DNA of 28,866 bases, taken from positions 1-28,866 of the IMG/VR virus record IMGVR_UViG_3300020423_000293. One strand, written 5' to 3'. Under the pieces are notes generated by a model. It saw only the letters and a program-made list of their open reading frames with translations. It searched no databases and was not told the DNA's origin. A program made the translations under genes and the position numbers. Positions 5,951 through 27,501 of the stretch are shown one piece after another. The DNA is from a virus. Within the stretch, counting starts at the first letter, position 1. Each line of letters begins with the position of its first letter.

Positions 5951-7102
5951 CTACCTTATAATGTCAATGTTTTCATCATCGCTCCATAGTTCTAACTCGG
6001 TTCTTACCCTATCCTCACCGGCCAGTTTACTATACCGTTTTTCTGCCTTGTTTCTCCACCACTCGACCACATTATCCAGAGCATATTTGTAACTGTTCTC
6101 GGCAGGCACCAGCGTCTGTGTTTTCCCCGTCATCACGTCCACCACGTTCTCATACCCATATGAGGACATATAGAATCTCTTTTGGTTGGTCATGCTCTGT
6201 GCTTTGGTGATGCTGTCCGTAAATAGTTTCAGTTGGTCTTGGTTGTTATGGTTACTGAGAGAATTCTTGAGAATGGCTATCATCTTCATGTGTATCTTCA
6301 ATTTCCGTGAGGCGGTTACGATACCTTTTGGGGTGTGGGTGGGAACGAGGGGTGTCCCATCGTTTTTGGAGGTGAACCACTTGTTTAGGTTTCTGTATCG
6401 GTCATCATTTAACAGTGGGGTAAACTTGCTGTCTGTCAGTCCCTTATACCTCAGAAACGGTTTCAGACCGTCATACTGTGAGCAGGTTTTGAGGTTACCA
6501 TACAGGGATGTCGTTTCAAACAGACATATCTCTGAACCGTATTTTTGATTGATGTGTTCCCTGATTTCGTGTGTGCAACACATCAACGCTAACAGTTTAC
6601 CACCAAGATAGTTGAAACCGAAGGGTTGCATCGGAACGATGATGAAACCCATGATTGCGTGTTTGTTTAGGAGCTTCAGGTCAAGGTTACCACCAAAGAA
6701 CTCGTTTCTCGGTTTGGAGTTAATCATCGGCGACCCTAACCTGATAACACCACAGATTTTACCTGTGGTGGTTTCCTCTACTACAATGATTATCCTTTTG
6801 CCGACCATAGCCCTCTCTGTAATGTGTGACGTTGTAAGGTCTAGAAGGCTGTCATAACTCTCTTGATTATAGTTGTAGTGTAATTTGAAACCCATATCCT
6901 TTGGGTTCAAGGAGAAGTCATCAAATATGTCGTCCTCGGGCGCACACCCAGGCAGAGTGGACGGCGTTTTCAATTTTGCCGTCGCCATCCTTTGCTGTTT
7001 TATGTCTCTTTGATAGTCATCAATCCTGTCATACTTCTCGAAGAAGTTAATGAATATCTCAGACGCATAGGTAGCATCACTATTCGTTAATATCAGACCC
7101 AT
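5951..7102 (-). CDS. DUF4338/DruA-like protein (copy 1)
   Basis: A 383-residue protein whose central part resembles DUF4338, the family that includes DruA of the Druantia defence system, and more loosely Mom-type GNAT-fold proteins. Visible landmarks are GKICGVIRLGSP, then IMGFIIVPMQPFGFNYLGGK followed by LLALMC, then ETTSLYGNLKTCSQYDGLKP. A second protein at 26159-27466 shares PMQP-GFNY-GGKLLAL and TTSLYG. The N-terminus is helical and charged; the C-terminus (from about 270) is helical. The start overlaps the end of uvsX by 23 bases, so it is coupled to the recombinase gene. What it does in phages is unknown; a DNA- or nucleotide-modifying role is a guess from the family. Confidence 0.7.
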   Translation of the reverse strand: MGLILTNSDATYASEIFINFFEKYDRIDDYQRDIKQQRMATAKLKTPSTLPGCAPEDDIFDDFSLNPKDMGFKLHYNYNQESYDSLLDLTTSHITERAMVGKRIIIVVEETTTGKICGVIRLGSPMINSKPRNEFFGGNLDLKLLNKHAIMGFIIVPMQPFGFNYLGGKLLALMCCTHEIREHINQKYGSEICLFETTSLYGNLKTCSQYDGLKPFLRYKGLTDSKFTPLLNDDRYRNLNKWFTSKNDGTPLVPTHTPKGIVTASRKLKIHMKMIAILKNSLSNHNNQDQLKLFTDSITKAQSMTNQKRFYMSSYGYENVVDVMTGKTQTLVPAENSYKYALDNVVEWWRNKAEKRYSKLAGEDRVRTELELWSDDENIDIIR

Positions 7103-8897: not shown

Positions 8898-9625
8898 TAT
8901 GTTTTTACTCCTACATTAATGATTTCTAGTTCACCATATTTATCTTCTACTAACGCCGTTGTGTTGGTGAACCAATCCCCGTCATTTGCATATATGAACC
9001 CGTCTATTTCCTTTATAGATGGATGATGTAAATGACCAACAACGACGCCGCTAAGATTCTCATTACGATATTTAACACCGGCAATAACCATTTGTGCATA
9101 ATTGTCTGAGATGTCCTCTTGTCGTTCTGACGTTAGGTATAACATAGATAACGACCTATATTTCTTCCCAAAAATCCTACGAAGCCAATTGTAACAGTTG
9201 TTAAACCATAATGTGAATATGTAATACTTGGTTGCCCATGCGTATTTGACCATATCGTTGTCAAACTCGTCCCCATGAGTTACCAGTATCCGTTTTCCGT
9301 TAGCTAATGTGTGAATGTGTTCCTTTTTTAGTTCTATACCACCGAAGTTAAGACCTATGAATTGTTTGAAACCCTCATCATGGTTACCCGGAATGTATAT
9401 AACTCTCGTTCCCTTTGCATCTAATTTCATCAGTTCCATAAAGACCTTATTATGTTCTTTCGGCCAGAACCAACCAGCCTTCAGTCTCCACATGTCAATA
9501 ATATCACCACATAAAAACAGTGTATCACACTTCATGTTATCTAGAAAATTCAATAACTCTTTGTGCTTGCTTGCCAACGTCCCTAAGTGAACGTCCGAAA
9601 TCCATACTGTTCTATACTTACGCAT
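8897..9625 (-). CDS. LpxH-like calcineurin-type phosphoesterase
   Basis: A 242-residue metallophosphoesterase with the full set of metal-binding motifs: SDVHLG (10-15), GDIIDMW (40-46), PGNHDEG (79-85), THGDEFD (116-122) and GHLHHP (197-202). Overall layout matches the UDP-2,3-diacylglucosamine diphosphatase family, which removes UMP during lipid A synthesis. Seen: an intact two-metal active site. Inferred: it acts on a lipid or nucleotide-linked substrate at the inner membrane, possibly to modify the host envelope. It diverges from the NlpC/P60-like gene across an 18-base gap and continues into the spanin-like pair. A weak TTGTTT-17-TATAAT promoter overlaps the divergent late promoter. Confidence 0.85.
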   Translation of the reverse strand: MRKYRTVWISDVHLGTLASKHKELLNFLDNMKCDTLFLCGDIIDMWRLKAGWFWPKEHNKVFMELMKLDAKGTRVIYIPGNHDEGFKQFIGLNFGGIELKKEHIHTLANGKRILVTHGDEFDNDMVKYAWATKYYIFTLWFNNCYNWLRRIFGKKYRSLSMLYLTSERQEDISDNYAQMVIAGVKYRNENLSGVVVGHLHHPSIKEIDGFIYANDGDWFTNTTALVEDKYGELEIINVGVKT

Positions 9626-9629
9626 ATAT

Positions 9630-9637
9630 TATAAATA
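9630..9637 (+). promoter_or_regulatory. T4-type late promoter for the plus-strand gene
   Basis: Exact TATAAATA on the plus strand. Only six bases separate it from ATG 9644, so the transcript should begin at or next to the start codon, giving a nearly leaderless mRNA. The same bases overlap a possible minus-strand TATAAT (9633-9628) with TTGTTT 17 bases upstream for the divergent LpxH-like gene. Confidence 0.65.
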
Positions 9638-9643
9638 CCTTTT

Positions 9644-10291
9644 ATGCCAAAAACAACTCTCAGATACGATATCCAATCATGGTTACTTAAAAAATTTGCA
9701 CACATCAAAGTGTTCAAGTACCCCCTATTTATTACTTATAACCCCACCACATTCAAATTAAAGAGTGATTCATACTATGCCGTACGTAAACTCGTCAAAC
9801 CGGGTGATATACTGTTGCGGGGTTATGATTCCTATCTGGATGGTTATTGTATCCCTGGTCTATATAGTCATGCTGCAATATATGTCGGTTGGTCCCCGAA
9901 TGGTGGGTCTGCTGAGAACGAACATATCATCCACGCAATGACACCCTGTGTCCAATATACCGACTTGGTTCAATTCATGCGGTGCGATAGGGTGTGTGTC
10001 GTTAGACCTACGGTCAATCCAAAACTCAGAGACCTTGCAGTTACAAAAGCTATATCTAAATTAAACGTTCCCTATGATTATGATTTCGTTTTTGATACAG
10101 ACAATCCCAACGACAAGGACAGGTTGTTTTCCTGTTCTGAGTTAGTATATTACTGTTACAATCACGTATTAAAACAATTAGGATGGAGACTCCATGAAAA
10201 AAATTATATATGCATTAGCAAGAAAATGTTTACCCCTGATAATTGTCTTCCAGTAGAAGGTTCAGCGTCTGAAATCGTCTGGCAAGGCTAA
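9644..10291 (+). CDS. NlpC/P60-type (YiiX-like) cysteine hydrolase
   Basis: The only plus-strand gene in the window. Its 215 residues follow the permuted papain-like pattern of YiiX/YebB proteins: VKPGDILLRG (51-60), YSHAAIYVG with His76 (74-82), VCVVRP (117-122), PYDYDFVF, and FSCSELVYYCY with the likely nucleophile Cys164. Such enzymes cleave amide or ester bonds in peptidoglycan or lipids. No signal peptide is evident, so export would need the holin pathway or the target is inside the cell. A late promoter directly abuts the start codon. The gene ends tail-to-tail with a minus-strand membrane protein (4-base overlap). Its divergence from an LpxH-like gene suggests a joint envelope role, which is inference. 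Confidence 0.8.
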   Translation: MPKTTLRYDIQSWLLKKFAHIKVFKYPLFITYNPTTFKLKSDSYYAVRKLVKPGDILLRGYDSYLDGYCIPGLYSHAAIYVGWSPNGGSAENEHIIHAMTPCVQYTDLVQFMRCDRVCVVRPTVNPKLRDLAVTKAISKLNVPYDYDFVFDTDNPNDKDRLFSCSELVYYCYNHVLKQLGWRLHEKNYICISKKMFTPDNCLPVEGSASEIVWQG

Positions 10292-11208
10292 CACTGAGAT
10301 TCTTCACCCGACCCTGGATTATGGGGCGGGACTTTAGACTTCTTAGGTTGCTTCTTATAGGTTTCCTTGTGCCAAGGGTATAGAGATTTAGGTTTACTCT
10401 TAGGTGCAGGTGCCTCTGGTTCCCTAACCCCTCCAAGACTACCAACCTGACCAAACAAACTCATATTCGCAGCGACCAACATAAGAATCGCCAATGGGTC
10501 AAAGACAAACACCAACGCAAGGATAACTGCCCTGACACATTCGTCTAGGAAATTGTTTGCTTGGTCACCATAAATCAACGCAGCGATATATTTGACAGGT
10601 CCAATATCGGCCTCTAGGTTACGCACCTTCTGCTGTAGTGGGAATTTCTTGTCAACCAAGATGTCAATAGCACCCTGAGCATCGGCAATTTCTATGTTCA
10701 ACTCATCACGTTCCGGCTTCTGGTTCTTTCTGGTCGCAATCGCACCACCCTTACCTCTTACACGATCATAACTCAACAGGACTTGGACGGAATCGTCCAA
10801 CTGTTGTATCACCAACTCAGCATCACGTATCCGTCTGTTCTCTCTTGTGATTGACATATCAATACGTTCAATCTTTGCTATCATCTCATCACTGGGTAGT
10901 GTCTGGTCTAGATGGGCTTTCGATAGGAACCCAAAGATGCCCATGCTTGTGATTAGCATCAGCATGACAACAGCCGCAGTTAAATACGTCTTGAGTAGCT
11001 TCGGTACCTGTTTCCAGTTTCTATACAACCACGAAGCAGTCACCAACTTACCGACTTCCAACACAGAGCCCATGATGATAATGGGTATCACTGCTGCGGA
11101 AAAGATTGCAGCAAGACCGACGATTGAATACCATGCAGCAACGATTGAGATTGCGATGGCTGTAACTAAAGTTAATATGCCTAAATTTCTATCTACACGA
11201 AATGACAT
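10288..11208 (-). CDS. Multi-pass membrane protein with coiled-coil loop
   Basis: A 306-residue protein with no recognised function. Hydrophobic segments lie near residues 8-40, 42-60 and 75-95, then a long charged helical region (about 105-200, IERIDMSITRENRRIRDAELVIQQ type) predicted to be coiled coil, then another membrane stretch (about 225-250, VILALVFVFDPLAILMLVAA). The tail is proline- and lysine-rich (APAPKSKPKSLYPWHK...) and ends in cysteine. ATG 11208 has a perfect AGGAGG site and sits eight bases after the stop of gp43 C, so it is co-expressed with the polymerase. It may anchor something at the membrane, but the sequence gives no direct clue. Confidence 0.8.
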   Translation of the reverse strand: MSFRVDRNLGILTLVTAIAISIVAAWYSIVGLAAIFSAAVIPIIIMGSVLEVGKLVTASWLYRNWKQVPKLLKTYLTAAVVMLMLITSMGIFGFLSKAHLDQTLPSDEMIAKIERIDMSITRENRRIRDAELVIQQLDDSVQVLLSYDRVRGKGGAIATRKNQKPERDELNIEIADAQGAIDILVDKKFPLQQKVRNLEADIGPVKYIAALIYGDQANNFLDECVRAVILALVFVFDPLAILMLVAANMSLFGQVGSLGGVREPEAPAPKSKPKSLYPWHKETYKKQPKKSKVPPHNPGSGEESQC

Positions 11209-11216
11209 GTTTCCTC

Positions 11217-12320
11217 CTAAATTTGTAACACGTTTCTCTTTTCAGCCTTCCAACCAACGGTATCCAAAATAATCTTCAAGGGCTCCAAGAATGTTTTTGA
11301 GAATTGCATATCGTAGTCTATATATTTCCCCAAATCCAACTCTCTTGGTAGAATATCAATAATCGCAAACACATTGTCCTGGAAGATATTTGGTTCCTTC
11401 ATATAACAAAATTTGAGGCTGTCTCCTTCTTGTATATACGGATATTTCCTTTGTAGTTTGTTTTCCTCGACCAAATTATTATAGATGAGGGCACCCCTAA
11501 CATGTATGGGGGTGCCTTTCTTGCAAAGGTCCCGTTCACCCTTATATTTATACAAACCGGTGACGCCTCTGGGGAAAGCAATGTCTTCAAATTGAGACCC
11601 CATGAATATCGTCTTAAACTCCTTGATGTGCTTTTGTAGGGTTTCCTCATCCTTCCTGAGTATGATACCGACACACTCCCTTAGTGAGTCCCGACACAGT
11701 TCAGGGGTTGACGACTTGACAATCTCCAACCCCTTGACCTTCAGTTTTGGTTCGTTTAGTCTTGTACCTTCATCATCATATACATTCAACGCATACCGTT
11801 TCTTGGCAGTCCAGAAACCCTTGTCTGCAATTACCTCTCGCTTCATGAACATTTTCTGTTCATATGCGTTCATGGTTACAGCAAGATCCTGATAACATTT
11901 ATCAATATATGGTTCAATTTTAGTCTTACAGATGTCATCAAGGAAGGCGACAATACTATCCGCATTATCTGCCTCCTCCGTATACATCTTACTAACCAAC
12001 TGATTAAAATTAATGTATAGTGAATCCGTATCCGATGCAATAACATAATCTACATCTCCTTCTGTGGTTTCTAAAAGTTCATTGATATAGAAGTTTACCT
12101 TATCAGCAATATATTGGATGGCGAGTTGACCCGATAAGGTCACTGCTTCCGCAACACGTACATCATAAAACCTGAAATACTCGTTACCAAGAGCACCATA
12201 CGCAGAGTTCAGCTGAACCTTCTTCGCAGTTTGGAAGGTGTCATACTGAGAAGCCTCAAGTCTCTTTTGGGTCAGTAACTCTCGTAGTTCTTCTGTTGTT
12301 AAGGTTGCTAAGTCATTCAT
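11217..12320 (-). CDS. 43B: DNA polymerase gp43, C-terminal half (split gene)
   Basis: Family B DNA polymerase, palm, fingers and thumb part, 367 residues. It carries motif B (KKVQLNSAYGALGN, 33-46) and motif C (ASDTDSLY, 95-102) with both catalytic aspartates, while motif A lies in the upstream gene. The break is therefore in the fingers region between motifs A and B. ATG 12320 overlaps the stop of a 31-codon membrane peptide gene by ATGA and has no ribosome site of its own. Together the halves total 850 residues, close to T4 gp43 (898). T4-related Aeromonas phages also have two-part polymerases, so an active two-chain enzyme is likely. No C-terminal clamp-binding hydrophobic tail like that of T4 is obvious. 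Confidence 0.95.
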   Translation of the reverse strand: MNDLATLTTEELRELLTQKRLEASQYDTFQTAKKVQLNSAYGALGNEYFRFYDVRVAEAVTLSGQLAIQYIADKVNFYINELLETTEGDVDYVIASDTDSLYINFNQLVSKMYTEEADNADSIVAFLDDICKTKIEPYIDKCYQDLAVTMNAYEQKMFMKREVIADKGFWTAKKRYALNVYDDEGTRLNEPKLKVKGLEIVKSSTPELCRDSLRECVGIILRKDEETLQKHIKEFKTIFMGSQFEDIAFPRGVTGLYKYKGERDLCKKGTPIHVRGALIYNNLVEENKLQRKYPYIQEGDSLKFCYMKEPNIFQDNVFAIIDILPRELDLGKYIDYDMQFSKTFLEPLKIILDTVGWKAEKRNVLQI

Positions 12321-12412
12321 TGTGCTGGTGTCATCGTTATGAGTAAATCAACAAGGGCAACGACGGTCAGGAAACCGAGTAAGAACATTAGTGGTATCAA
12401 TAGGTATTTCAT
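12317..12412 (-). CDS. 31-codon membrane peptide between the polymerase halves
   Basis: A 31-codon frame fills the gap between the two gp43 genes exactly. Its ATG overlaps the stop of gp43 N as ATGA, and its TGA overlaps the ATG of gp43 C as ATGA. The peptide is a single hydrophobic helix (MKYLLIPLMFLLGFLTVVAL, then VDLLITMTPAQ), typical of a small membrane protein. It does not resemble a homing endonuclease or intein. AAGGAG lies 15 bases before the ATG inside gp43 N, so translation is probably by coupling. The tiling and the clear membrane pattern argue for a real gene; function is unknown. Confidence 0.65.
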   Translation of the reverse strand: MKYLLIPLMFLLGFLTVVALVDLLITMTPAQ

Positions 12413-13860
12413 GTCCGTTTCTTCAACTCCTTCTTAATGGATTCAATGTCTTTGTAGGCTTGGAGCATCTTCTTCTTTGCTCGTGCCCGGTCATTGAACA
12501 TGGTTTCAATAATTTCTGGTAGAAACCCCTGCTTAGATTTGTCAAAATAGTATCCGTTCGCAGCTAAGGCATACTCTGTATCATTCTTAACCTTACCACT
12601 GATTACGTCCTTCACCTTAATGTGCTTATCAATATGTATGTCTTCAATGATGGTTTCTGGGGACAAATTATACTGCATGTGGAGGTGAGGATACAGACTC
12701 ACCAAGTCGAAACTAACAATCCATTCGTGCATCCCCACCTGTGGGTCCTTCACGTAAGCACCTTCATATGGATGATTCTTGGGGGTTTTCTTCTTCTGTG
12801 GAACGACAATTTTTCTGTCTAGAAGGTAGTTGTGGATGATTGTGTCCCACAGCCTGATTTGAGTGAACACATCTGAATAGTTGACCTTTGCGTCATATGC
12901 TGCGGTCAATACGAGGTCGATGAACCCCCCTTTCTGGTCAATGCGTTGGACCAGTCGGGTGTCATGGATGTTGTAGTCAATGTATTTCTCGAAATTCTTT
13001 TCATATAGGTCATACAGGGTTCGATACTCCGAGTAGTCTATCTTCCTCTCGTTTAACTCTACATGGGCAATATAGTTCAGTTTGTATGACTCTCGTTTTT
13101 CTTGGGTGAACTTCTTATATATCTCCAACATGTCCAAGACAGCGATGCCTACAATGTCGAACAGTTGTTGGGTTTTGCCCATGATGGTTGTGGTTCTGTC
13201 GGTGAACAACCCCCACGGCGAGAACGTTTTAGCGACACGCTTACCTAGGATGTTGGTCGTCCTGTTGATCAAATAGGGAATATCGAAAAACGTGATGTTC
13301 CATCCTGTGACCACATCGGGTTTAATCTTGTTCCACAACTTCAGAAATTTTAGTATCAGGTCTTTCTCGTCCTTGCACTTGAGGTACTTGACGTTCTTGT
13401 CCTTCGGTGTGTAGTCCCCACAACTGATGGCGTAGAACACGTTGTTATACTCCAGTGTAATCGCAGATATCGGTGCGAAGGCGTCTGTGGGTGAGGGGAA
13501 CCCATCGTCACTTTTCACCTCAATGTCAATGTTCGCAACACGTATGAGTGATTTGTCAAAGACGACCTTGCCCGGAAATTCTTCGTTGAGATACGTGTGG
13601 GTAAATCTAAAGTTCCCATAGATGTCAAAATTATTAACACCCTGGTATCTCTGTACAAACTGCTTAGCGTCCCGTATCGTCTGAAACTTTTTGGGTTCGA
13701 CGGGAGCGTTATCTAAGGTTTTGTATTGGGACTCTAGGTCTTTTGTGGGGATATAGAGGGTCGGTGAGTATAGAACTTTCTTGAAAAACTGCTTCCCATT
13801 GTCATATCCACGTACCAACACATTATTACCTACGGCATGGGCATTTGTATAGAAGTACAT
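12409..13860 (-). CDS. 43A: DNA polymerase gp43, N-terminal half (exonuclease and motif A)
   Basis: Family B DNA polymerase, 483 residues, containing the N-terminal domain, the 3'-5' proofreading exonuclease and the start of the palm. Exo I is NIDIEVK (D112, E114), Exo II GWNITFFDIPYL (D193), Exo III YNIHDTRLV (D300), and polymerase motif A is SFDLVSLYPHLHMQYNLSPET (D385). The protein ends in a charged fingers helix (ESIKKELKKRT). The stop overlaps the 31-codon membrane peptide. The start overlaps the Sm-like gene as TAATG. All catalytic residues of both activities are present across the two halves, so this is a natural split rather than decay. Confidence 0.95.
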   Translation of the reverse strand: MYFYTNAHAVGNNVLVRGYDNGKQFFKKVLYSPTLYIPTKDLESQYKTLDNAPVEPKKFQTIRDAKQFVQRYQGVNNFDIYGNFRFTHTYLNEEFPGKVVFDKSLIRVANIDIEVKSDDGFPSPTDAFAPISAITLEYNNVFYAISCGDYTPKDKNVKYLKCKDEKDLILKFLKLWNKIKPDVVTGWNITFFDIPYLINRTTNILGKRVAKTFSPWGLFTDRTTTIMGKTQQLFDIVGIAVLDMLEIYKKFTQEKRESYKLNYIAHVELNERKIDYSEYRTLYDLYEKNFEKYIDYNIHDTRLVQRIDQKGGFIDLVLTAAYDAKVNYSDVFTQIRLWDTIIHNYLLDRKIVVPQKKKTPKNHPYEGAYVKDPQVGMHEWIVSFDLVSLYPHLHMQYNLSPETIIEDIHIDKHIKVKDVISGKVKNDTEYALAANGYYFDKSKQGFLPEIIETMFNDRARAKKKMLQAYKDIESIKKELKKRT

Positions 13861-14153
13861 TATGTGATGAGTTCTGGTCCCACCGTAAGTAACCCACTAC
13901 CAAAGGCTTTGCTGTAATTGTTTTCTAGTTCTGTGACTGGAAAATACACATACATCACTTTATCCCTACCAATCGTTATCACATTTTCTTTGCTCATAGG
14001 TGCACCTGGAACCATGGCAAGTTGAGGTTGACCAGTTTTACCTGAAACCATCTGAAACGCAGCTGGTTTCTTTATTCTGTATGTTTGGTCTGTTTCTGTG
14101 ACATCACCGATAATTTCCTCACCGGTCACCAATCTTACTACTTTAACGGCCAT
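13860..14153 (-). CDS. Sm-like (Hfq/LSm fold) protein
   Basis: A 97-residue protein with an N-terminal pattern typical of Sm folds (VKVVRLVTGEEIIGDVTETDQTYRIKKPAAFQM) and a second strand pair later (DKVMYVYFPVTELE). Marine T4-like phages commonly carry such a protein next to gp43; RNA binding is expected from the fold but not shown here. ATG 14153 follows a CAGGAG site. A sigma70-type promoter 30-60 bases upstream makes it the first gene of the unit that continues by a TAATG overlap into gp43 N, so it could influence polymerase expression. Confidence 0.75.
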   Translation of the reverse strand: MAVKVVRLVTGEEIIGDVTETDQTYRIKKPAAFQMVSGKTGQPQLAMVPGAPMSKENVITIGRDKVMYVYFPVTELENNYSKAFGSGLLTVGPELIT

Positions 14154-14185
14154 ATTCTAAACTCCTGTGTTACGTTCATTTTCTA

Positions 14186-14214
14186 AGTATAACACAAGTA
14201 TACTGAAAAGTCAA
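14186..14214 (-). promoter_or_regulatory. Sigma70-type promoter for Sm-like protein and gp43
   Basis: TTGACT (14214-14209), a 17-base spacer and TATACT (14191-14186) preceded by TGT, on the minus strand. It lies in the short gap after the metallopeptidase gene and before ATG 14153. Confidence 0.8.
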
Positions 14215-14216
14215 CT

Positions 14217-14690
14217 CTAATTATTCTCTCTTATAACAGTACCATCTGGCACATTTTTGGGGCAATTACTGAAAAACCTAATATACTTCTTTCGCATATG
14301 TTTGATAGGGTCGGGTCTCATCTTTTCCCAAAGGTATTGACCACCTAATATGTATGCTTCTTTTTCTCTATGCCTATCACATTCAAATGAGGCTCTAGTC
14401 TCTCTCTGAACGTGGTGAACCAACTCATGTAACAGTTTCTCCCGATCTTGATATTTGTCGGGATTAAACGTGTCACTGAGGTAAATGGTTTTTGTGTGTG
14501 CGTCATACAATCCAAAAAATTTATCAACGTGAGTCTCTTTCAATCCAGAATAACCCGGGTGATTTTTTGTTGCTCTCTCATACAATTCCTGTTGAGGTAC
14601 TAGCACAACGTTTGGGTCGTCTAAATTTTCTGTGATGTAGGGAGTATGTGTGGAAATCCACACAAACAGCAGTGCTATTAATTTTTCCAT
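14217..14690 (-). CDS. Small HExxH zinc-peptidase-like protein
   Basis: From ATG 14690 the protein has 157 residues (a TTG at 14696 would add two). A short hydrophobic N-terminus (LIALLFVWIS, 4-13) may be a signal or anchor. HELVHHV at 88-94 is a canonical zinc-binding HExxH, and EKEAYILG with Glu111 could give the third ligand, as in gluzincins. The sequence between them (ETRASFECDRH) is charged. Seen: an intact HExxH. Inferred: a small metallopeptidase acting in the periplasm, perhaps late in infection because two late motifs lie about 110 bases upstream. The substrate is unknown. The ribosome site (AAAGAG) is weak. Confidence 0.75.
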   Translation of the reverse strand: MEKLIALLFVWISTHTPYITENLDDPNVVLVPQQELYERATKNHPGYSGLKETHVDKFFGLYDAHTKTIYLSDTFNPDKYQDREKLLHELVHHVQRETRASFECDRHREKEAYILGGQYLWEKMRPDPIKHMRKKYIRFFSNCPKNVPDGTVIRENN

Positions 14691-14798
14691 CGGCAAGCTC
14701 TTTCGTTCTTTAAGCCCTATGAAGATGAACAGCCAGAAAAGCAGGGCACTATTTTAACGTTTTAATATTTTCTCCTAATGGGTTGTTTCCATCCCTTC

Positions 14799-14817
14799 TA
14801 TTTATACTCTATTTATA
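14799..14817 (-). promoter_or_regulatory. Two tandem T4-type late promoters
   Basis: Two exact TATAAATA motifs on the minus strand (14806-14799 and 14817-14810), 11 bases apart, lie between the 45-codon gene and the HExxH gene. They would give leaders of over 100 bases to the metallopeptidase gene. The rest of the gap (14697-14798) holds no convincing gene; a loose inverted repeat GCCCT/AGGGC is present near 14722-14755. Confidence 0.7.
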
Positions 14818-14826
14818 CACATTACA

Positions 14827-14964
14827 TCAGAATATGCTTATGGAAACGGCATATGATAAGAACGTAAGGATAACCAAATTCCTTCTCAACCGTTCCTCCG
14901 CAGGCGTTATTGGGTTACGGATGTGAGTTATACTTAGTGCGCCTGGAAATACTGTTTTCCTCAT
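14827..14964 (-). CDS. 45-aa single-pass membrane peptide next to the lysis genes
   Basis: A 45-codon frame starting at ATG 14964, which overlaps the stop of the lipoprotein gene (ATGA). A charged segment (TPAEERLRRN) is followed by a C-terminal hydrophobic helix (LVILTFLSYAVSISIF), giving an N-in, C-terminal membrane topology. It closes the lysozyme-lipoprotein block. By position it might help lysis (holin or antiholin type), but one short helix is not enough to prove that. No homologue is recognised. Confidence 0.55.
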   Translation of the reverse strand: MRKTVFPGALSITHIRNPITPAEERLRRNLVILTFLSYAVSISIF

Positions 14965-15485
14965 TTTGATGGTCTCGTAAGTACAACAATATTATAACCC
15001 TTATCAATTCTCAAATACCGCATCTGTGTTTGTTTAGCAATATCTACCCATGAAGTTGGTGTTGTATCAAGTTGTGTGTTGAAATTGATATATGTTGTGG
15101 GCAAGTCAACGGGGGTTGGTGCTTCTTTTAAATACTGTGATTTATTCACATCGGGTGTCCACCATGACGTTTTGTTTTGACAAAACTTACTGGGTTGTAA
15201 TCCAGCTTTCTTTGTGTTGCTATCCTCAAGGAAATGGAATGTGGAACAATCTTTATCTGTTACTGCACTAGCAATATGGTCAGTTGAAGTCTTTTGTGTT
15301 GTTATGAGACTTGCAACGTCAACGGTTGTCTTTGTTTGCATAATCAATTCGGCTGTCCATGATGATATTAAACCACCAGCTACCTTAGTTAAAACTCCAG
15401 AACAACCAGACAACAGAAACATACCTATAAACGTAAGCATATACAAGCTAACTAGGAACTTTCCTCTATCATTTAGTGGTGTCAT
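14961..15485 (-). CDS. Lipoprotein downstream of lysozyme, 174 aa
   Basis: A hydrophobic N-terminus (VSLYMLTFIGMFLLSGC) ends in the lipobox LSGC near residue 28, so the mature protein is probably a periplasm-facing lipoprotein. The rest is polar and threonine-rich, with three later cysteines or so and a WTPDVNKSQYLKE segment; no family is recognised. It overlaps the lysozyme gene upstream and the 45-codon gene downstream, both as ATGA, so it belongs to the lysis block. It could be an outer-membrane spanin or a superinfection-exclusion lipoprotein; the sequence does not decide. Confidence 0.65.
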   Translation of the reverse strand: MTPLNDRGKFLVSLYMLTFIGMFLLSGCSGVLTKVAGGLISSWTAELIMQTKTTVDVASLITTQKTSTDHIASAVTDKDCSTFHFLEDSNTKKAGLQPSKFCQNKTSWWTPDVNKSQYLKEAPTPVDLPTTYINFNTQLDTTPTSWVDIAKQTQMRYLRIDKGYNIVVLTRPSK

Positions 15486-16000
15486 TGTTTGTACTCCTTT
15501 GGAACTTTACCATAACCAACTACTCTGTCCCATTGGCGTTGTGTGTATTTATTAGTAATGTGATTTGCCTCTCTCATTCGTTGTACGAGTCTCACCGACC
15601 TACCACCAACTTGGTGATACCATCTGCTATCCTTCATCTCGTCTGCTGCTGTTTCCCAATCACGGGATTTGACGGCCGCAATCATGTTCTTGAATTTACC
15701 AAATCTTGTTTGGCCAAGATTAAACGCCATGTTAAGTAGGACGTGTTGCACATCCTCTGGATACGTATAAAAATCTGAAAATGTCTTATGACAAGTTACG
15801 GTCGCTTCGTCAAGGTCTTTCAGGAAAAGCACATCGCACAATTCTTCTGATATAGTTTCGCCCACATGATAGAGGAAATTGTCCTTCGGTTCTATCAAAT
15901 GACCTATACCGACGGTGGGATAACCTTCTGAATCTAGATAAACGTCAAGCCTAATGCCCTCATCATCAATTAGTTCAGTTTTCAACTGTTCTAAGTTCAT
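15482..16000 (-). CDS. e: T4-type lysozyme (endolysin)
   Basis: A glycoside hydrolase family 24 muramidase that cuts the peptidoglycan glycan chain during lysis. The catalytic triad of T4 lysozyme (E11, D20, T26) is conserved here as E14, D23 and T29 in IDDEGIRLDVYLDSEG and YPTVGIGH, with identical spacing. Further matches are NMAFNLGQTRFGKF and SRWYHQVGGRS. At 172 residues it is close to T4 lysozyme (164). There is no signal peptide, so it needs a holin. ATG 16000 has AAGGAG upstream. It follows a highly structured intergenic segment after hsp20. Confidence 0.95.
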   Translation of the reverse strand: MNLEQLKTELIDDEGIRLDVYLDSEGYPTVGIGHLIEPKDNFLYHVGETISEELCDVLFLKDLDEATVTCHKTFSDFYTYPEDVQHVLLNMAFNLGQTRFGKFKNMIAAVKSRDWETAADEMKDSRWYHQVGGRSVRLVQRMREANHITNKYTQRQWDRVVGYGKVPKEYKQ

Positions 16001-16712: not shown

Positions 16713-17036
16713 TTAAACAACTGGTGACCCGTAACCCCAACCGTAAGGGACGGGACCTGAAAATGCGACCACATCACCCTCATCCACAGTGAAACCTAGT
16801 CGGGGACCACCGTTTATATGGGGGGTGATGTCTCGTCCGTTGACCAGCACCAGAAAAACTTCACTGGATGGAATGCCACAACGGTTCAGGATGTCACCTA
16901 TACTGGTCCCTGCTTCCACTTCCATGGATCCATGACCATCATATGAGGATAGACTGTTGAATAGACGTACTTCTATAGTGAGAACGCAGTCACCAGAGTT
17001 GTGACCGATATTATACTCCGGTTGAGCCAAAACCAT
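16713..17036 (-). CDS. MoaD/ThiS-like ubiquitin-fold protein
   Basis: I chose ATG 17036, which has an AGAGGT site; upstream ATG 17057 and TTG 17060 are alternatives. The 107-residue protein has the beta-grasp pattern of MoaD and ThiS: CVLTIEVRLFNSLSSYDGHG, VEAGTSIGDILNRCGIPSSE, FLVLVNGRDITPH, then DEGDVVAFSGPVPYGWGYG. MoaD and ThiS are small sulfur carriers that are thiocarboxylated on a terminal Gly-Gly; here the end is GWGYGSPVV, so the true diglycine is missing and three more residues follow. It may be a binding protein rather than a carrier. It overlaps the dUTPase gene by 26 bases and ends just before the hsp20 promoter. Confidence 0.7.
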   Translation of the reverse strand: MVLAQPEYNIGHNSGDCVLTIEVRLFNSLSSYDGHGSMEVEAGTSIGDILNRCGIPSSEVFLVLVNGRDITPHINGGPRLGFTVDEGDVVAFSGPVPYGWGYGSPVV

Positions 17037-26158: not shown

Positions 26159-27466
26159 CTAACGGCCGACCTCACCGAGATACTTTTCCTTGGTTTCCGG
26201 CCATGTTTTCGTGACCAGGTCGTCTAAAAAGAAGGTTTTGTCACTCACACGGTCGTTCCGTTGCAAGGATTCTATCCTACGACGGGCATACTTGTTTTTC
26301 CATAGGTCAACCAAGGTCTCCACCGAGTTGTCAAACGCAGGTTCCAGTTTATCCTCTGAGATGTCGGCACGTAAAAATTCGTTGGTGTTGGTGTATAGTT
26401 TTGCAAAGTAGATACCACGTTCATGGGAACTTTGGAAACGGTCACTCTTGATATCCAGACCCCTGTAACATGTTTGGTTGCACCTATTGGTTGCATCACG
26501 TTTAAACGGTAGACCAGACCTTCTGGTCGCAAGTGTGTACTCCCAATACTTTCTGGGATTTTCCACTCGTAACCAATTCCGCATAACCTTCTTGACCTTC
26601 TTAGATGGTTGATATGCGATACTACCTTTGGAATACCCCATACGTTTCCAATATTTGAGGTTGTCATACTGGGACATCCCATGACCCCCCTTGTATTTTC
26701 CATATAAAGAGGTCGTGGTCACACCAACCAATTTATCACCGTATGATTTTTCCCACAACTTAGGCACCGGTTCCGACAAGCACAACAACGCTAACAACTT
26801 ACCACCAACATAATTGAACCCTAGTGGTTGCATGGGAATAATGGTCGACCCTATCGCAGTAAACCGAACCCTCTTTTCATCTGTCCTTTGTTCCCTCGTC
26901 CAACCGATTTTCTCGTCACGGGCTGTCAGGTCTAAAAAATCTCCAGATACAGTAATGACACCAAGATATTTTCTTGACACCTTGTCACGGATGAGGAAAC
27001 TCATCGCTCTCTGGGGTCCCACTCCGGCGTGCATTTGATTTGAACAGAATATCCTCAGTGTCGTCCAGTCTGTAGAGAGTGGTATCTGGTCAGGATTATC
27101 AGATGTCGGGACACTTGTGTCTCCTTCTTTCACATACACCAGTTCTGGTTCAAGTCCCATATAGTCGTCAAGGGACTTTGGAATCCAAATGAGGGATTTT
27201 GCCCTGTTGATGGCGTTGATTTGTCTTTTGTTTTTTAGACTGTGACCACCAAACAAATCATTCACTGTGGGGTACTTGAATTGTATTTCTTCCCACTTCT
27301 GGTACAACGTATATTCTTCAACAGACATTTGGTTAATCTTGTTGAGGTCATCAACGACGGTCTTCCGTATCTCATCTTTATCCACAGCCTCAAACGTTTG
27401 GGTGTCATGCCATTTCTGGTACATTTCATCCATCTCTGTCTCTGAAAAGAAAAGGTCTTGTGTCAT
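26159..27466 (-). CDS. DUF4338/DruA-like protein (copy 2)
   Basis: A paralogue of the protein at 5951-7102. I chose ATG 27466 (435 residues); an in-frame GTG at 27481 would lie on the promoter -10. The core has YLGVITVSGDF, RDEKIGWTREQR, TIIPMQPLGFNYVGGK followed by LLALLCL, and TTTSLYGKYKGGHGMSQYDN, matching the DUF4338 order (G-V-I, RDxxIGW, PW/PM-Q segment, E/TTSLYG). The N-terminus is acidic and helical. The promoter sits so close that the mRNA may begin at the ATG, and no ribosome site is present. Function in phages is unknown; DruA belongs to a defence system, so counter-defence or DNA-modification roles are possible. Confidence 0.72.
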   Translation of the reverse strand: MTQDLFFSETEMDEMYQKWHDTQTFEAVDKDEIRKTVVDDLNKINQMSVEEYTLYQKWEEIQFKYPTVNDLFGGHSLKNKRQINAINRAKSLIWIPKSLDDYMGLEPELVYVKEGDTSVPTSDNPDQIPLSTDWTTLRIFCSNQMHAGVGPQRAMSFLIRDKVSRKYLGVITVSGDFLDLTARDEKIGWTREQRTDEKRVRFTAIGSTIIPMQPLGFNYVGGKLLALLCLSEPVPKLWEKSYGDKLVGVTTTSLYGKYKGGHGMSQYDNLKYWKRMGYSKGSIAYQPSKKVKKVMRNWLRVENPRKYWEYTLATRRSGLPFKRDATNRCNQTCYRGLDIKSDRFQSSHERGIYFAKLYTNTNEFLRADISEDKLEPAFDNSVETLVDLWKNKYARRRIESLQRNDRVSDKTFFLDDLVTKTWPETKEKYLGEVGR

Positions 27467-27472
27467 TTTAAT

Positions 27473-27501
27473 ATTATACACCTATTCCTAGTAAATGTCA
27501 A
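27473..27501 (-). promoter_or_regulatory. Consensus sigma70-type promoter, nearly leaderless
   Basis: TTGACA (27501-27496), 17 bases, TATAAT (27478-27473) on the minus strand, then only six bases to ATG 27466. The -35 overlaps the end of the deformylase gene. The transcript is expected to start at or beside the start codon. Confidence 0.9.

What the first reader, a model, noticed from the sequence alone, without database searches (positions are those of the whole stretch)
11217..13860. Split DNA polymerase with a 31-codon membrane gene tiled between its halves
gp43 is divided between motif A and motif B (fingers region). The gap is not a homing endonuclease or debris: it is one short frame coding a single hydrophobic helix that shares ATGA with the stop of the first half and ATGA with the start of the second. 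All catalytic residues survive in the two chains. The layout forces ribosomes to pass through the membrane peptide to reach the second half, so the peptide could set subunit ratio or tether the polymerase to the membrane. Split gp43 is known in T4-related Aeromonas phages; a membrane micro-gene at the joint is not something I know of.
Basis: partly seen in the sequence, partly recalled or inferred. Interest (0 to 1): 0.85.

Follow-up and report, generated by a model that had tools for sequence, protein, structure and literature searches.

The report
Cytochrome remnant inside split phage polymerase
A marine T4-like phage makes its DNA polymerase as two chains, and the tiny "membrane gene" between them is the leftover signal sequence of a cytochrome c gene that sister phages still carry intact at the same joint, a joint where related phages keep many different genes.

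Summary
gp43 is split on the minus strand into 483 and 367 residues, with a 31-codon hydrophobic frame tiled between them by two ATGA overlaps. All catalytic residues survive. The interpretation does not hold. Near-identical phages (flanks about 99%) carry at the same joint a 114-codon c-type cytochrome gene (PF13442, E=7.5e-12). Its signal anchor is this peptide. The window has lost 83 codons, exactly in frame, so the peptide is a deletion remnant, shared with one other contig, and not a conserved polymerase part. The split itself is more interesting. The same fingertip of gp43 is split in 47 distinct related viral loci. There the joint holds nothing, an Sm-like protein, a 2OG-Fe(II) oxygenase, a phosphomannomutase-like enzyme, homing endonucleases, or combinations. 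Non-nuclease genes are almost always tiled by short overlaps. Every split polymerase whose joint was aligned has longer finger helices (61-70 versus 47-53 residues). Split and unsplit states interchange repeatedly on the tree. Best reading: a two-chain polymerase held together by elongated finger helices, the joint acting as a translationally coupled slot for passenger genes. Split gp43 is known in Aeromonas phages; tiled passengers and the cytochrome were not found in the papers searched.

The parts
12409..13860 (-). gp43A: N-terminal half of the B-family DNA polymerase (exonuclease domain, motif A, first finger helix)
   Evidence: PF03104 E=1.8e-25, PF00136 E=2.4e-19; T4 alignment
12317..12412 (-). 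31-codon frame: signal anchor left from a deleted c-type cytochrome gene; ATGA overlap at each end
   Evidence: first 91 nt identical to the cytochrome gene of L083; full 114-aa gene in L001, L083, L084
12321..12322 (.). deletion junction: 249 nt (83 codons, the whole heme domain) present here in sister contigs is missing
   Evidence: exact break in pairwise alignments; imperfect repeats ACACCAGCAC / ACACAAGAAC at the two ends
11217..12320 (-). gp43B: C-terminal half of the polymerase (second finger helix, motif B, motif C DTDS, thumb)
   Evidence: PF00136 E=1.6e-15
13860..14153 (-). Sm-like family gene (phrog_527) just upstream of gp43A; the same family is the commonest gene found in the joint of other split phages
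   Evidence: phrog_527 E=2e-13; hhalign against joint Sm-like proteins 95.3%, E=2.3e-8
10288..11208 (-). membrane/coiled-coil gene just downstream of gp43B; its homologue lies inside the joint in L094
   Evidence: 40% identity over 245 columns, E=2e-53

Best explanation
gp43 of this marine T4-like phage is a two-chain polymerase broken at the fingertip. The joint is a slot into which passenger genes are tiled by short frame overlaps. In this phage population the passenger is a small exported c-type cytochrome. In the window's genotype a 249-nt in-frame deletion has removed its heme domain and left the 31-residue signal anchor. Shown: the split, the overlaps, the full cytochrome gene in sister contigs, the deletion, varied passengers in related split phages, and longer finger helices in the split polymerases that were aligned. 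Inferred: (1) ribosomes finish 43A, re-initiate on the passenger and then on 43B, so the passenger frame must stay open for 43B to be made, which would explain why a dead cytochrome remains as an in-frame stub; (2) the two chains reassemble through the elongated antiparallel finger helices, which replace the covalent hairpin; (3) the split first arises through invasion by homing endonucleases or recombination, after which neighbouring genes fill the gap; (4) the intact cytochrome serves electron transport at the membrane or periplasm of the infected host.
For: Cytochrome: PF13442 E=7.5e-12, above its curated cut-off; CYTCH heme motif and MPSW; PDB relatives are cytochrome c-552 and the p-cresol methylhydroxylase cytochrome subunit. 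Same joint, about 99% flanks, exact 249-nt break. One contig, L085, ends exactly at the breakpoint, as an assembly fork between two alleles would. The deletion is in frame and keeps both ATGA overlaps. Slot: 47 distinct loci split at the fingertip with different contents, 81 of 90 gene borders overlapping by 1-14 nt. Finger helices: split 61-70 residues, intact 47-53, no overlap. Recurrence: at least 5 and at least 10 split/intact changes forced by well-supported branches in two trees. Precedent: split 43A/43B of Aeromonas phage 25 co-purify and have polymerase activity (PMC2988022, citing Petrov 2010).
Against: No expression, activity or structure data. Only two contigs carry the deletion, so selection on the stub cannot be measured; an in-frame deletion has a 1 in 3 chance. 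The AlphaFold model of the cytochrome is poor (pLDDT 52.7), so that assignment rests on profile and motif. Start codons of 43B are predictions, which makes the finger-helix lengths approximate. The window lineage sits on a long branch, so whether its split shares an origin with the Sm-carrying clade is unresolved.
Confidence: 0.8

Rival explanations
1. The 31-codon frame is a functional membrane micro-protein that anchors the split polymerase or sets subunit ratio.
For: It is an intact frame with a strong hydrophobic helix and ATGA at both ends, and it is the same in two contigs.
Against: The same residues are the signal anchor of a full cytochrome gene in three sister contigs; other split phages have no membrane peptide there.
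Confidence: 0.07
2. The reverse history: the 31-codon gene came first, and a heme domain was inserted into it later.
For: Both alleles occur in one population with about 99% identical flanks, so polarity is not read from a tree.
Against: It needs an in-frame insertion of exactly one complete cytochrome domain behind a ready signal anchor; a single deletion between imperfect 10-nt repeats is simpler.
Confidence: 0.06
3. The gene is not truly two-chain: the halves are joined by programmed frameshifting, trans-splicing inteins or a spliced intron.
For: Frames overlap by a few bases; split inteins in fractured phage genes are known (Dassa 2009, cited in PMC10448857).
Against: Pfam shows no intein domain on either half; no Rfam intron at the joint; fusion would put a membrane helix or a whole passenger protein into the fingers; passengers of 88-354 residues sit in the gap.
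Confidence: 0.05
4. The joint is only scar tissue from homing endonuclease invasion; passenger genes have no link to polymerase expression.
For: Endonuclease genes sit at the same fingertip in L271, L309 and L167, as in Aeromonas phage 25 (PMC2988022).
Against: Endonuclease genes there start 28-55 nt after the 43A stop, while the other passengers almost all overlap it; passengers are diverse and recur in different lineages.
Confidence: 0.25

Closest known systems
Split gp43A/gp43B of Aeromonas phages 44RR and 25
   Same: B-family T4-type polymerase broken at the fingertip (44RR at about T4 residue 510, window about 523); two separate genes; phage 25 halves co-purify and are active (PMC2988022)
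   Different: There the gap is an untranslated sequence (44RR) or a seg homing endonuclease (phage 25); here it is a coding passenger tiled by ATGA at both ends
Class I cytochrome c, Cytochrome_CBB3 (PF13442) / c-552 type
   Same: The L001/L083/L084 gene has an N-terminal anchor, CxxCH and a Met-Pro segment
   Different: The window retains only the anchor; the gene is phage-borne and sits inside a polymerase gene
mobE-split nrdA of Aeromonas phage Aeh1
   Same: Essential phage enzyme made as two chains around an inserted gene (PMC2988022)
   Different: The insert there is a homing endonuclease; none is at the window's joint
Fractured genes with split inteins (Dassa 2009)
   Same: Environmental phage genes broken in two with a gene between the halves (from memory; paper not held)
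   Different: No intein domain on either half here

Membership tests
Split gp43 of T4-related phages | Two frames that together give a complete gp43 with all catalytic residues | tested here: met
Split gp43 of T4-related phages | Break at the fingertip between motif A and motif B | tested here: met
   window about T4 523, 44RR about T4 510
Split gp43 of T4-related phages | Halves associate and polymerise DNA | not testable with these tools
   shown for phage 25 only (PMC2988022)
Class I cytochrome c (PF13442) | CxxCH heme attachment motif | tested here: not met
   absent from the window's 31 codons; present in sister contigs L001, L083, L084
Class I cytochrome c (PF13442) | N-terminal export signal or anchor | tested here: met
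   hydrophobicity 2.58 over 19 residues; identical to the cytochrome N terminus
Homing-endonuclease-split gene | Endonuclease gene in the gap | tested here: not met
   none in the window; present at this site in L271, L309 and L167
Split-intein fractured gene | Intein halves at the break | tested here: not met
   only exonuclease and polB domains in Pfam
Intron-interrupted gp43 | Self-splicing intron at the joint | tested here: not met
   no Rfam match up to E=0.1 in 9000-16000

The most novel reading that the evidence does not exclude
The fingertip of T4-type DNA polymerase is a recurrent, perhaps reversible fission site used as an expression slot: passenger genes, including a respiratory cytochrome, are translated between the two polymerase chains in obligatory series, so their output is tied to the replication enzyme.
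Probability: 0.45. Interest if true: 0.8.

Novelty: new variant of a known kind. Interest (0 to 1): 0.62.

Why it matters
It turns a few known oddities (split gp43 in Aeromonas phages) into a general pattern in uncultured aquatic phages: a core replication enzyme breaks again and again at one structural point and hosts changing genes there. It gives a natural series of two-chain polymerases in which finger-helix length can be compared with and without the break. It also shows a phage carrying a c-type cytochrome, with intact and deleted alleles in one population. As a caution, a micro-gene that looks designed can be the signal peptide of a deleted gene.

Tried and rejected
Membrane tether by the 31-mer: rejected on sister contigs. 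Intein: no domain on either half. Intron: no Rfam match in the window region or in the six loci tested. Assembly error: the same junction is in L002, and a contig end falls at the breakpoint in L085. Cellular source of the cytochrome: the genome-contig scan found no relative and phage isolates gave none, so the host is unknown. AlphaFold of the cytochrome was too poor to use. L275 was first counted as a joint endonuclease, but its break lies between motif A and the fingers, so it is excluded from the 47. An automatic regular-expression measure of finger length depended too much on start-codon choice and left many sequences unparsed; the alignment-based measure is used instead. The Petrov 2010 and Dassa 2009 papers were not held and are cited through PMC2988022 and PMC10448857.

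Full report
What is in the window. The minus strand carries a T4-type replication block: gp44-like and gp45-like proteins, a CobS-like ATPase (phrog_249), UvsX, a DnaB-like helicase and gp43. Closest isolates by the helicase are Methylophilales phages Melnitz and T4-like cyanophages, at about 56-61%. gp43 is in two frames, 13860-12409 and 12320-11217, with a 31-codon frame at 12412-12317 between them; both borders are ATGA. Aligned with T4 gp43, the break falls at about residue 523, in the fingertip, and the catalytic acids of both active sites are kept.

What the micro-gene is. Searching with 43B gave L001, whose 43A and 43B are 99.4% and 100% identical in protein but whose gap is larger. Its joint frame reads MKYLLIPLMFLLGLLTVVALVDLLITMTPAR, followed by a domain with CYTCHDH and MPSW: a c-type cytochrome, PF13442 E=7.5e-12, with cytochrome c-552 among its PDB relatives. 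A second scan found the same gene in two more contigs, L083 and L084, and the stub in L002; L085 ends exactly at the break. Pairwise alignments give one clean 249-nt difference, 83 codons, in frame, with flanks about 99% identical. The ends show imperfect repeats ACACCAGCAC and ACACAAGAAC. L002 (stub) and L084 (full gene) have 43A genes with no difference in 1,452 nt, while L002 and the window, both with the stub, differ at 26 of 5,285 positions, so the stub allele seems to have moved between backgrounds by recombination (inference). The heme domain is nowhere else in the window. The stub is therefore a deletion remnant. Keeping the frame keeps both overlaps, which would matter if 43B depends on ribosomes arriving from upstream (inference; one in three deletions is in frame by chance).

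The joint as a slot. Among loci fetched with four gp43 queries and an Sm-like query, 48 distinct loci (window included) are split; one (L275) is split elsewhere, leaving 47 at the fingertip. Sampling favoured split forms, so this is no prevalence. Contents: nothing (L014, L095, L097, L118, L120, L268, L274, L317, L327); an 88-94-residue Sm-like protein (most); 2OG-Fe(II) oxygenase (L096, L121, L128, L132; PF13640); phosphomannomutase-like HAD enzyme (L114; PF03332 E=6.3e-26); tail assembly chaperone plus Sm-like (L093; PF16778); Sm-like plus a homologue of the window gene at 10288-11208 (L094; 40% identity); homing-type endonucleases (L271, L309; L167 together with Sm-like); and the cytochrome or its stub. 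The Sm-like model has pLDDT 89.3 and its best PDB match is 3by7, an Sm/LSm-like protein. The family also flanks gp43 in the window and in unsplit phages, so passengers include genes that are otherwise gp43's neighbours.

Tiling. Of 90 borders measured, 49 overlap by 4 nt, 18 by 1 nt and 14 by 8-14 nt; the four loosest (+28 to +55 nt) are all 5' borders of endonuclease genes, one of them in L275. Passengers other than nucleases are thus built into a coupled series; nucleases are not.

Finger helices. From the alignment, the segment across the fingertip is 61-70 residues in split polymerases and 47-53 in unsplit marine relatives, without overlap; T4 and 44RR have a different, longer fingertip (88-89). 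The later-found splits L268, L274, L317, L327 and L271 were only inspected by eye and also look extended. The extra residues extend both helices, for example KELEEVNKQLKEL and TKQELLQRKKQLEKDISK in L005. I infer that the longer antiparallel helices hold the two chains together.

Phylogeny. On a 127-row tree the unsplit label needs at least 5 changes on well-supported branches, and on a 58-row IQ-TREE at least 10 (one split row, L275, being split elsewhere), with the fingertip columns left out. Splitting is recurrent or reversible or both. L121, L128 and L132 lie among unsplit relatives, yet their fingertip resembles that of the Sm-carrying clade, which hints at transfer of the joint itself (inference). 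The window's lineage is on a long branch of its own.

Known ground. Split gp43 is described in Aeromonas phages 44RR (untranslated spacer) and 25 (seg endonuclease), and the phage 25 halves co-purify with activity (PMC2988022; 44RR annotation). Searches of the paper library found no report of passenger genes tiled into split gp43, nor of a c-type cytochrome in such a place. A study of virus-encoded nitrogen genes in oxygen-poor waters says no cytochrome carriers were observed in its phages (PMC8115048); cbb3 oxidase subunit I genes were reported in Indian Ocean viromes (PMC3474794). The library is partial, so novelty is provisional.

Verdict. Observation confirmed; interpretation partly supported; the peptide is ordinary debris in itself, but it sits in an unusual and more general arrangement.

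Noticed in passing
window 16726-17008, against L220: L220 (IMGVR 3300020364_000098), otherwise nearly identical, lacks about 283 nt here: a second deletion polymorphism in the same phage population.
   Followed up: no
L275 1945-2650: HNH endonuclease gene (PF01844) inserted in gp43 at another site, between motif A and the fingers.
   Followed up: partly
L121, L128, L132 against L127, L141: Split, oxygenase-carrying phages lie among unsplit relatives on the gp43 tree, yet their fingertip sequence resembles that of the Sm-carrying split clade: possible horizontal transfer of the joint.
   Followed up: partly
window 5951-7102 and 26159-27481: Two proteins that both match phrog_19197, of unknown function: possible paralogues in one phage.
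   Followed up: no
window 9644-10291 (+): A permuted papain-like amidase (Peptidase_C92) on the plus strand between minus-strand genes.
   Followed up: no
L085 end (contig IMGVR 3300034992_000099): The contig stops exactly at the cytochrome deletion breakpoint, suggesting both alleles in one sample.
   Followed up: partly
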